Of a DNA stretch of 64,000 nucleotides, positions 17,798-49,300 are shown piece by piece. The position numbers were made by a program, and so were the translations under genes. Numbering within the stretch: the first letter of the stretch is position 1; the number at the start of each line of letters is the position of its first letter. The notes beneath the pieces were generated by a model. It was not told where the DNA came from and did not search any database. It saw only the letters and a program-made list of their open reading frames with translations. The stretch comes from Moorella thermoacetica (GTDB lineage: Bacteria > Bacillota > DSM-521 > Neomoorellales > Neomoorellaceae), in contig NZ_CP012369.1 in NCBI RefSeq assembly GCF_001267405.1, positions 770,001-834,000 of the forward strand, read 5' to 3'.

Positions 17798-17842
17798 GGA
17801 GGAGCCCCTCATGGCGGCTGATGCCCCCGCCAGCGAATTATG
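17798..17842 (+). repeat. Dispersed ~45-bp repeat, copy B
   Basis: Begins GGAGGAGCCCCTCATGG, continues GCTGATGCCCCCGCC and ends AGCGAATTATG. It lies 64 bp upstream of ileS in the same direction. The internal ATG, 7 bases after GGAGGAG, opens a 10-codon frame (MAADAPASEL, then TGA). No T-box features (AGGGTGGTACCGCG or a specifier loop) are present in the ileS leader. Confidence 0.7.
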
Positions 17843-17905
17843 AAAATGTGGGTTAAGGCAAAATTATTTTTGGTAGGACCCTATTTGGAGGAGTGGCGAG
17901 ACTAA

Positions 17906-21824: not shown

Positions 21825-21921
21825 TGTCCCCTAAAGTTTCCCAGCCGAGAACCCCGAAGCCAGGAAGGCTGTACCTGGAGAGGGGGCATCTAGGGAATTG
21901 ATAAAAAAGGAGGAAACCACC

Positions 21922-43690: not shown

Positions 43691-44017
43691 GGCTGTGGTG
43701 CTCCTCCAAAAATAGGGTTTTGCCAAAAAGGTGATTGCTGTTTCAGGTGTATTCCAGCTTCTTTGGGGCTGGGGGTACAGGCTCTGGGCTCCGGTGGTTC
43801 TCGGCTAGCAAACTTTACGCTCAGCCTTGCTCGGCGGCGGGGGTGGCTTGGCTTTATCTCATTGTTCGTTGGCAAAGGCGTTAGCCCCATGAGGGGCTCC
43901 TGCGATTTACTATACCACATAAACTGGCCGGCTGGAAACTCCTCGCCCGTCTGTTCTTTTCTTCCAGGGACAGGCATAGACTGATGGTGATTCCGGAAGA
44001 AAGAAGGGGCGAGGGGA
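43691..44017. other. Divergent intergenic region rqcH / Ca2+-ATPase
   Basis: 327 bp between divergent genes. It holds repeat copy C on the minus strand (43860-43904) and, just upstream of it on that strand, TATAGT as a possible -10 for rqcH. No convincing promoter was seen for the ATPase. Open frames here have no ribosome-binding sites or recognisable product. Confidence 0.5.
43860..43904 (-). repeat. Dispersed ~45-bp repeat, copy C
   Basis: Read on the minus strand it runs CGCAGGAGCCCCTCATGGGG, CTAACGCCTTTGCC, AACGAACAATG. It is oriented toward rqcH, about 170 bp upstream of it. It lacks one G relative to copies A, B and D in the GGGG(G) run, so any short reading frame is not conserved, which favours a structural or DNA-level role. 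Confidence 0.7.
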
Positions 44018-46888: not shown

Positions 46889-47728
46889 TTGCATTTTGTC
46901 AAAATGCACGGCCTGGGCAATGACTTTGTCCTGGTAAACGCCATGACGGAAAAGGTGCCCGGCGATTTACCTGGCCTGGCGCGGCGGGTCTGCCACCGCC
47001 GTTTCGGTATTGGCGCCGACGGCCTGATCCTGGTCCTGCCCTCCGAACAGGCCCGGCTCAGGATGCGGATCTTTAACCCCGACGGGAGCGAGCCGGAGAT
47101 GTGCGGCAACGGCATTCGCTGTTTCGCCCGCTACGTTTATGAAACCGGCCTGGCGGAGGGAGAAGAACTTCAGGTGGAGACCCTGGCCGGCATTATTAAA
47201 CCCCGGCTGATCCTTGAGGGCGGCCGGGTGGCCGGCGTCCGGGTGGATATGGGCGCGCCCCACCTGGAGCGGGAGCAGATTCCCATGGCCGGTACGGGCT
47301 CGCCGGTGCTGGACGAACCGATAGAGGTTAATGGGGAAACCTGGCGGGGCACCTGTGTCTCCATGGGCAATCCCCACTGCGTTTTTTTTGTTGAGGATGT
47401 TACCGGGGCGCCTGTAACCACGGTGGGCCCCGTGGTGGAGCACCACCCCCTCTTCCCCCGGCGCACCAATGTAGAGTTTATCCAGGTGCTTAACCGGGAA
47501 GAACTGCGGATGCGCGTCTGGGAGCGGGGGGCCGGCGAGACCATGGCCTGCGGCACCGGGGCCTGCGCCGCCGCTGTGGCCGGGGCCCTCACCGGCCGCA
47601 GCAACAGGAAGGTAACAGTGCACCTGGCCGCCGGGGACCTGCAGATAGAATGGTCGCCGGTGGATAACCATGTCTATATGACTGGCCCGGCCGTAGAGGT
47701 GTTCCGGGGCGATTTTCCCCTGGATTAA
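46889..47728 (+). CDS. dapF: Diaminopimelate epimerase
   Basis: DapF converts LL- to meso-diaminopimelate for murein and lysine. The 279-residue protein has both catalytic cysteines: PEMCGNGIRCFARY and ETMACGTGACAAAVAG, plus the start HFVKMHGLGNDFVLV. TTG start after AAGGGTGAT. dapL, whose product feeds DapF, lies 400 bp downstream. Confidence 0.96.
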   Translation: MHFVKMHGLGNDFVLVNAMTEKVPGDLPGLARRVCHRRFGIGADGLILVLPSEQARLRMRIFNPDGSEPEMCGNGIRCFARYVYETGLAEGEELQVETLAGIIKPRLILEGGRVAGVRVDMGAPHLEREQIPMAGTGSPVLDEPIEVNGETWRGTCVSMGNPHCVFFVEDVTGAPVTTVGPVVEHHPLFPRRTNVEFIQVLNREELRMRVWERGAGETMACGTGACAAAVAGALTGRSNRKVTVHLAAGDLQIEWSPVDNHVYMTGPAVEVFRGDFPLD

Positions 47729-47816
47729 GCGCCCGGCGGCAAAACGAGGATACGGGAACTATGCCGCGCTTACCGTAAGTGACGATCTAAGCATTTTCGG
47801 GAAGCCTTTATTAACA

Positions 47817-47860
47817 GAGGAGCCCCTCATAGGGGTTGACGTCCCCGCCAGCGAACAATG
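47817..47860 (+). repeat. Dispersed ~45-bp repeat, copy D
   Basis: GAGGAGCCCCTCATAGGGG, TTGACGTCCCCGCC, AGCGAACAATG. It sits about 15 bp before the structured RNA candidate upstream of dapL and in the same direction. The ATG of copies A-C is ATA here, another argument against a conserved short peptide. Confidence 0.7.
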
Positions 47861-47872
47861 GAATATGAGCAT

Positions 47873-48064
47873 TAGAGGGGGTGAGGCAGGTTCCCGGAGG
47901 GCGCCTTTGCGCTTAGTTCAGAAGAACGAGGACGGCTGAGGAATAGCGCGGCCACCCTGTTTGAGGCCCGCAGGGCCGAGTTGTGGCCGCGCCCGAAGCC
48001 GGCCGAGTTCGACACAAGTATAATGGCGCAACCAGCGCCCGAAGGGAACCTGCCTCACCCCTAG
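47873..48064 (+). ncRNA. Candidate structured RNA (~190 nt) between dapF and dapL
   Basis: The outer arms GGGGTGAGGCAGGTTCCC and GGGAACCTGCCTCACCCC (18 bp, ending near 48061) pair perfectly. Inside are a GGA/GAA internal loop, GGGCGC/GCGCCC, TGCGC/GCGCA, a large bubble holding a GTTC-AGAA-GAAC hairpin on its 5' side, CGGCT/AGCCG, GCGCGGCCAC/GTGGCCGCGC and an apical GGCCC-GCA-GGGCC hairpin. This long rod with a central bubble resembles 6S RNA in size and outline. Its place before dapL also raises a regulatory leader such as a lysine riboswitch, but the known lysine-riboswitch signature is not convincingly present. The rest of the 47729-48127 gap holds repeat copy D and the dapL ribosome-binding site. 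Confidence 0.65.
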
Positions 48065-48127
48065 CGGCAGATTGACGTTAATATCCTTTTTTGCCAGAAC
48101 CCTATTTCCATAAGGAGGACGCGCACC

Positions 48128-49300
48128 ATGCAGGAAGCCAGAAGGATTCGCGAACTACCGCCATACCTCTTTGCCCGTATCGAGAAAAAAATCGCCGAGG
48201 CCCGGGAGCGGGGAGTGGATATCATCAGCCTTGGCATCGGCGACCCCGATATGCCAACTCCGTCCCACGTGATAGACAAGCTGGTCGCCGAGGCCCACAA
48301 CCCGGAGAACCACCGCTACCCCACCTCCGAAGGCCTGCTGGCCTTCCGCCAGGCGGTGGCCGATTGGTACCAGAGGCTTTATGGTGTCGACCTCGATCCC
48401 CGGCGGGAGGTGGTCACCCTCATCGGCTCCAAGGAGGGTATCGCCCACATCTCCCTCTGCTACGTCGACCCCGGGGACATCAACCTGGTGCCGGACCCCG
48501 GCTATCCCGTCTACAATATCGGCACCCTCCTGGCCGGCGGGGAATCCTACTTTATGCCCCTGACGGCGGCCAACGGTTTTCTGCCGGATCTGGGGGCCAT
48601 CCCTAGCGATGTAGCCCGCCGGGCGAAACTCATGTTTATCAATTATCCCAACAACCCCACCGGCGCCGTGGCCGACCTCAAGTTCTTCCAGGAAGTCGTC
48701 GAGTTTGCCAGGAGCTACGATTTAATTGTCTGCCACGACGCTGCCTACAGCGAAATCACCTACGACGGCTACCGCGCCCCCTCCTTCCTGCAGGCTCCCG
48801 GTGCCAAAGAGGTGGGTATCGAGTTTAATTCCGTATCCAAACCCTATAACATGACGGGGTGGCGCCTGGGATGGGCCTGCGGCCGGGCCGACGTCATCGA
48901 GGCTCTGGCCCGCATCAAGTCCAACATCGATTCTGGGGCCTTCCAGGCTGTCCAGTATGCCGGCATCGCCGCCCTGACGGGACCCCAGGAGGGCCTGGCC
49001 GAAGTCCGGCGGGTTTATCAGGAACGGCGTGATATCATCGTCGAAGGCTTTAACTCCCTGGGCTGGCATCTGGAAAAGCCCAAAGCCACCTTCTACGTCT
49101 GGGCCCCGGTGCCCCGGGGGTATACCTCGGCCAGCTTTGCCGAGATGGTCCTGGAAAAGGCGGGGGTCATCATCACCCCGGGGAACGGTTACGGTAACTA
49201 CGGGGAAGGCTATTTCCGCATCGCCCTGACCATCAGCAAGGAGAGGATGCAGGAGGCCATCGAGCGCCTGCGCCGGGTCCTGGGGAAGGTCGAATTTTAA
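48128..49300 (+). CDS. dapL: LL-diaminopimelate aminotransferase
   Basis: DapL converts tetrahydrodipicolinate directly to LL-DAP, a shortcut replacing the acylated DapD/C/E route. The 390-residue fold-type I aminotransferase has [36 protein letters not shown] and the PLP lysine in [20 protein letters not shown] start after AAGGAGG. With dapF nearby this gives two successive steps of meso-DAP synthesis. Confidence 0.95.

What the first reader, a model, noticed from the sequence alone, without database searches (positions are those of the whole stretch)
47873..48064. Large rod-shaped RNA candidate between dapF and dapL
An 18-bp perfect closing helix encloses nested helices, a GGA/GAA loop and a central bubble over about 190 nt. 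Nothing coding fits. Size and outline resemble 6S RNA, but position before dapL would suit a lysine/DAP-linked regulatory RNA; the known lysine-riboswitch signature is not clear, so it may be a new class.
Basis: partly seen in the sequence, partly recalled or inferred. Interest (0 to 1): 0.7.

Follow-up and report, generated by a model that had tools for sequence, protein, structure and literature searches.

The report
Jumping RNA-like element at ribosome-binding sites
The hairpin before dapL is not a dapL switch but one copy of a small mobile element, common across the bacterial genus Moorella, that inserts exactly at the ribosome-binding sequence in front of genes and whose ends match a transposon steered by a guide RNA, so it appears to spread through operons without cutting genes off from their start signal.

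Summary
The rod is real: 192 nt, -120 kcal/mol, z = -10. Its helices show compensatory changes across 22 copies. It is neither 6S RNA nor a lysine riboswitch: both families ring strongly elsewhere in the same genome and not here. It is not dapL-specific.

It is the cargo of a 287-bp dispersed element (47823-48109). Relatives with the same ends and other cargo (A, B, minimal) occur in all 11 Moorella genomes searched, with dozens of copies in some. They sit in sense orientation directly upstream of a native Shine-Dalgarno (SD) sequence, with a second AGGAG at the left junction. Orthologous loci without the element have short gaps with an intact SD. The window holds four such elements.

The element's left end matches the left end of an IS110-family transposon. 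One Moorella genome has nine copies of that transposon, all inserted at AGGAG. Its bridge-RNA guide position reads AGGAGGAG. In 20 related IS110 loci the same guide position matches the left target (0/5000 shuffles).

Best explanation: a natural non-autonomous mini-IS110, moved in trans to SD sites by a bridge-RNA recombinase. Open points: no close intact partner was found in the two most colonised genomes, and the role of the rod itself is unknown.

The parts
47816..47822 (+). left SD-like sequence AGAGGAG flanking the element
   Evidence: 40 of 42 left flanks carry G at the fourth position of a GGAGGAG-like 7-mer; same position in 9/9 IS110 copies of G008
47823..48109 (+). complete non-autonomous element (A type): left end + rod + right end CTATTTCC
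   Evidence: boundaries from alignment of dispersed copies and empty orthologous sites
47823..47867 (+). left-end frame: CCCCTCAT(G) hairpin, GCCAGCGAAC, AATGGAATATG; homologous to IS110 left ends. In this copy the conserved ATG is ATA
   Evidence: frame HMM hits the 5' end of the G008 IS110 (E 5e-6) and the G014 IS110 (E 2e-8); ATG in 40/44 copies
47877..48062 (+). rod A: the finding; structured cargo with covarying helices
48100..48109 (+). right end CCCTATTTCC (consensus CCTATTTTC), resembling right ends of related IS110s (ATTTC / TTATTTTC / CTATTTTC)
48112..48118 (+). native SD AAGGAGG of dapL, same as in element-free orthologs (TAAGGAGGA)
48128..49300 (+). dapL, downstream gene
   Evidence: ORF; relatives
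46889..47728 (+). dapF, upstream gene
   Evidence: ORF
17805..17886 (+). second family member in the window: minimal 82-bp frame without rod, between CGGAGGAG and GGAGGAG, before an ileS-like gene
43708..43896 (-). third family member: B-type derivative before an rqcH/FbpA-like gene, flanked by GCAGGAG and GGAGGAG
21833..21876 (+). fourth, degenerate B-type remnant upstream of a gene start
   Evidence: (E 3e-4), sequence

Best explanation
The rod is the structured cargo of a non-autonomous mobile element, in effect a natural mini-IS110. The element consists of the left and right ends of an IS110-family transposon with a non-coding cargo between them. SHOWN by sequence: it is dispersed, with same-framed relatives carrying different cargo; copies sit at SD sequences in the sense direction; orthologous sites exist without it; its left end equals that of an IS110 transposon that also sits at SDs; the guide position of that transposon's non-coding RNA spells the SD; guide and target covary in relatives. 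INFERRED: an IS110 recombinase with an SD-programmed bridge RNA acts in trans on the element ends and recombines the circular form (right end-CGG-AGGAG-left end) into the SD of a gene. AGGAG then remains on the left and the right copy continues into the native start region, so the downstream gene keeps an SD about 10 nt before its start codon. This makes insertion into operons nearly neutral and fixes orientation. The rod is then co-transcribed between dapF and dapL and folds in the mRNA. Its most likely direct effects are local mRNA stability/processing and physical spacing of the two cistrons. It is not ligand sensing.
For: Dispersed copies: 3 A-type in the own genome, many in relatives; B-type relatives in 11/11 Moorella genomes, at least 35 matches in the own genome and 44 in G009 with a scoring cap. 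Sense orientation at gene starts: 54 of 70 right ends are followed within 75 nt by a same-strand ORF start, and 8 of the other 16 run into another element. Left flank SD-like in 40/42. Empty sites: pheT, larC, argG, glmM orthologs have short gaps with an SD; dapL orthologs lack the rod. IS110 link: 9 copies of a 1712-bp, 425-aa IS110 in G008, all beginning AGGAG|CCCCCCATGGGGGCTGGCGCCCCC and ending ATTTCGG|AGGAG, 8/9 directly before a same-strand ORF. Frame HMM without the SD hits exactly that terminus at E 5e-6, and a second IS110 (81% identical recombinase) at E 2e-8; control IS110s do not match. Guide: after GAGCCCG the IS110 RNA reads AGGAGGAG; over 20 loci guide/left-target common substrings sum to 140 against 82.9 shuffled, 0/5000. 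Published: IS110 bridge RNA left target guide (PMC11208160); mini-IS with 29-bp LE and 16-bp RE moved with its seekRNA and transposase (PMC11187229).
Against: No close intact partner (E <= 1e-70) was found in G009, the most colonised genome; in the own genome only 46%-identical relatives with a different target turned up. The right-end similarity is short (about 8 nt; the 3' HMM gave no hit). An HMM of distant IS110 left ends finds only 6 of 40 element loci weakly, against 1 hit in 506 kb of control, and nothing in the window. Rod A and module B show no homology to the IS110 non-coding RNA. Some left and right SD copies share non-consensus letters (8 against 3.8 expected, p = 0.02), which would also fit a classical target-site duplication. 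The 20 guide loci include a duplicate and a few doubtful picks. No transcript, protein or movement data.
Confidence: 0.8

Rival explanations
1. Classical MITE moved by a DDE-type or other transposase that happens to prefer SD-like sequences and makes a short target duplication (AGGAG).
For: Direct AGGAG repeats on both sides; left/right non-consensus letters shared slightly above chance (p 0.02); BOX/RUP-like modularity (PMC3049150).
Against: The frame has no terminal inverted repeats (the inverted repeat is internal, in the rod); no such transposase with these ends found; the one transposon with matching left end and the same target is IS110-type.
Confidence: 0.1
2. Conserved cis-regulatory leader RNA (new riboswitch-like or protein-binding class) present before many genes as a regulon.
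For: Strong covariation; always sense and upstream of genes.
Against: Unrelated downstream genes, species-specific positions, empty orthologous sites, swapped cargo at the same site (larC: A module in G000, B module in G005), near-identical paralogs inside one genome.
Confidence: 0.07
3. 6S RNA, lysine riboswitch or other known RNA.
For: Size and outline only.
Against: No Rfam match; real 6S at G000:C1:1606879-1607063 (116.5 bits) and real lysine riboswitch at 987941-988112 (119 bits).
Confidence: 0.01
4. IS200/IS605 (Y1) palindrome-associated element.
For: Fixed target and orientation, hairpin near the left end.
Against: Y1 transposases absent from the own genome and G009; the Y1 loci inspected have unrelated ends; the right SD is native sequence, not part of the element.
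Confidence: 0.02

Closest known systems
IS110-family transposons with bridge RNA / seekRNA (IS621, ISEc21)
   Same: Left-end hairpin and terminal motif, sequence-specific target encoded in a guide loop, fixed orientation, non-coding RNA involved, ends suffice for movement in trans in published mini-IS assays (PMC11187229)
   Different: These elements carry no recombinase gene and no recognisable guide; they carry rod-shaped cargo; the target is the SD, whereas the paper read here reports REP targets for IS621
MIRU (mycobacterial interspersed repetitive units)
   Same: Short mobile repeats inserted at gene starts in the gene direction with little harm to the gene (PMC12548453)
   Different: MIRUs are described as supplying an ORF coupled to the next gene; here the native SD is preserved at the right junction and a start codon is set 6 nt after the left SD; no sequence relation tested
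BOX/RUP/SPRITE of pneumococcus and other MITEs
   Same: Modular, highly folded, intergenic, non-coding, many copies, likely effects when co-transcribed (PMC3049150)
   Different: BOX/RUP have terminal inverted repeats and TSDs; here orientation and target are fixed and the ends are IS110-like without TIRs

Membership tests
IS110-family element (non-autonomous) | left end homologous to an IS110 left end | tested here: met
   frame HMM hits nt 6-45 of the G008 IS110 (E 5e-6) and G014 IS110 (E 2e-8)
IS110-family element (non-autonomous) | right end homologous to an IS110 right end | tested here: inconclusive
   only about 8 nt shared (ATTTC/CTATTTTC before the SD); HMM no hit
IS110-family element (non-autonomous) | same target and orientation as the partner IS110 | tested here: met
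   9/9 IS110 copies at AGGAG, 8/9 before a same-strand ORF; 40/42 small elements with SD-like left flank
IS110-family element (non-autonomous) | partner bridge RNA guide matches the target | tested here: met
   guide AGGAGGAG; 20-locus guide/target test 140 vs 82.9, 0/5000
IS110-family element (non-autonomous) | movement depends on DEDD recombinase and bridge RNA | not testable with these tools
   needs a transposition assay
IS110-family element (non-autonomous) | close intact partner in the same genome | tested here: not met
   none at E <= 1e-70 in G009; own genome has 46%-identical relatives with another target
MITE (DDE type) | terminal inverted repeats at the element ends | tested here: not met
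   ends CCCCTCATGG / CCTATTTTC are not inverted repeats
MITE (DDE type) | target-site duplication | tested here: inconclusive
   AGGAG on both sides, weak left-right correlation p 0.02; may be shared core/target sequence
6S RNA RF00013 | covariance-model score above gathering | tested here: not met
   no hit at the locus; true 6S elsewhere
Lysine riboswitch RF00168 | covariance-model score above gathering | tested here: not met
   no hit at the locus; true one elsewhere
MIRU | internal ORF coupled to the downstream gene | tested here: not met
   mini-ORFs of variable length mostly stop early within the element, far from the next gene; this copy has ATA instead of ATG

The most novel reading that the evidence does not exclude
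A class of structured non-coding parasites (rods A, B and others) that have captured bridge-RNA transposon ends, use an SD-programmed bridge RNA supplied in trans, and colonise ribosome-binding sites genus-wide; the covarying rod would be needed as RNA or folded DNA, either for mobilisation by the IS110 complex or to keep the host mRNA working, making these RNA-dependent mobile elements in their own right.
Probability: 0.25. Interest if true: 0.9.

Novelty: new variant of a known kind. Interest (0 to 1): 0.74.

Why it matters
If right, a guide-RNA-directed recombinase has evolved to target the Shine-Dalgarno sequence, a site present in front of many genes, in a way that leaves the gene's SD intact. 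That would explain how dozens of copies are tolerated inside operons of one genome. It also supplies a natural example of trans-mobilised mini-IS110 elements, natural guide reprogramming that can be read directly from sequence, and a ready source of SD-specific bridge RNAs. It warns that conserved, covarying structures before genes can be mobile elements rather than riboswitches.

Tried and rejected
6S and lysine riboswitch: rejected. dapL-specific leader: rejected by empty orthologs and unrelated downstream genes. IS200/IS605 mobiliser: Y1 families searched, not in the own genome or G009, unrelated ends. Plasmid or phage origin: no match to the element in either collection. Homology of rod A or module B to the IS110 non-coding RNA: none found. 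Right-end HMM against IS110: no hit. Distant IS110 left-end HMM: weak only. Strand-of-function test by G-U versus A-C: 57 to 39 in favour of the plus strand, suggestive only and not independent counts. Literature: terms on Moorella repeats, and on IS110 with SD or with miniature elements, gave no description of this family in the held library; subscription papers and ISfinder were not searchable.

Full report
OBSERVATION. The 192-nt rod is present and far more stable than chance. No curated RNA family covers it on either strand.

IT IS A DISPERSED ELEMENT. A search of the own genome found two further copies. Ten of 61 related genomes had matches, with more than ten in some. Aligning copies with their flanks showed that similarity extends beyond the rod. 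The 5' part (CCCCTCATGGGGGCTGACGCCCCCGCCAGCGAACAATGAAAATG) and the 3' part (ATTTTTGGCAGAACCCTATTTTC) are shared by elements whose interior differs: rod A (this finding), module B (a different rod of about 350 nt in total), short forms without the inner arm, and a minimal 82-bp form. B-type relatives occur in all 11 Moorella genomes searched. Outside the genus only two other genera of the family give matches. The window holds four members, all before gene starts.

WHERE IT SITS. With anchors that exclude the SD itself, 70 right ends were collected; 54 are followed within 75 nt by a same-strand ORF of at least 60 codons, and 8 of the remaining 16 run into another element. The left flank is SD-like in 40 of 42. 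Empty orthologous sites show short natural gaps with an intact SD at pheT, larC, argG and glmM; at dapL the relatives also lack the rod. The right-hand SD continues into the native sequence (for example dapL TAAGGAGGA in relatives, ATAAGGAGGA here), so the element ends just before it. At larC the same site carries rod A in one species and a truncated B module in another. In 40 of 44 copies the left end puts an ATG six nt after the left SD. This could be hairpin conservation or could make short leader peptides; the window copy has ATA.

STRUCTURE. Over 22 rods, 90.7% of cells pair and 21 of 64 pairs have double changes. Shuffles and slid structures do not reach this. This supports selection on the folded form; it does not say whether as RNA or as folded DNA. 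G-U exceeds A-C on the plus strand, 57 to 39, weakly favouring RNA from the gene strand.

THE PARTNER. IS110-type recombinases are present in 9 of 11 genomes. In G008, nine copies (at least 99.8% identical) of one 1712-bp element (425-aa ORF) all start AGGAG|CCCCCCATGGGGGCTGGCGCCCCC...CATGAAAT and end ATTTCGG|AGGAG, with unrelated outer flanks. Eight of nine lie directly before a same-strand ORF. The HMM of the small elements' left end, built without the SD, hits this terminus (E 5e-6) and the left end of an 81%-identical recombinase's element in G014 (E 2e-8), and not other IS110s. Related IS110s across the phylum have the same layout, CATG-hairpin-ACCA...GATGAAAATG on the left and (T)TATTTTC on the right in several.

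THE GUIDE. In IS110 elements a bridge RNA left target guide specifies the target (PMC11208160). In the loci here the nucleotides after (A/G)GCCCG repeat the left flank of each element (CTATTTAGAC/CTATTTAGAC, CAAATAGAC/CAAATAGAC, AAAAAAGTC/AAAAAAGTC). Over 20 loci the match sum is 140 against 82.9 in shuffles, 0 of 5000. In the Moorella IS110 the same position reads AGGAGGAG. The SD preference is therefore most simply a programmed guide. A published mini-IS with 29-bp left and 16-bp right ends plus target flanks moved when its transposase and seekRNA were supplied (PMC11187229), which is the configuration proposed for these elements.

WEAK POINTS. The two genomes richest in small elements lack a close intact partner. 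The right-end match is short, and the cargo is unrelated to the IS110 RNA. The AGGAG repeats might still include a duplication. Nothing here shows transcription, effect on dapL, or movement.

VERDICT. Ordinary readings (6S, lysine, dapL switch) are excluded. The best reading is a natural, cargo-bearing mini-IS110 that targets Shine-Dalgarno sequences.

Noticed in passing
window 17805-17886, 21833-21876, 43708-43896: Three further family members in the same 64-kb window, all in sense orientation upstream of gene starts (ileS-like, unnamed, rqcH/FbpA-like).
   Followed up: yes
L355 (G041 IS110 relative): An IS110 in an unrelated genus whose left flank is TTTTCGAAGGAG and whose RNA contains GTGAAGGAG: possibly an independent SD-programmed bridge RNA.
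   Followed up: no
L282, L285, L094 (G009): A third cargo type (GGGAGAAATGAGAGGC...GCCTCCCACCTCTCACC...CATCTCATTTC) in the same left-end frame, often in tandem with B elements at the next SD.
   Followed up: partly
L180, L181 (G002, G008 glmM locus): A further element type (GCATGAAAATGCCTGGCTGGCATTTG...AATGCCAGCCTG...TTATTTTC) abutting the native SD of glmM.
   Followed up: no
left ends of 40/44 elements: ATG six nt after the captured SD, often a 10-codon ORF (MGADAPASEQ) ending in ATGA: possible leader peptide.
   Followed up: partly
L135 (G009:C1:2276442-2276531): A short rod A form lies just before a gene that looks like mtrB (TRAP).
   Followed up: no
G000:C1:1606879-1607063 and 987941-988112: Genuine 6S RNA and lysine riboswitch of this genome.
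   Followed up: yes
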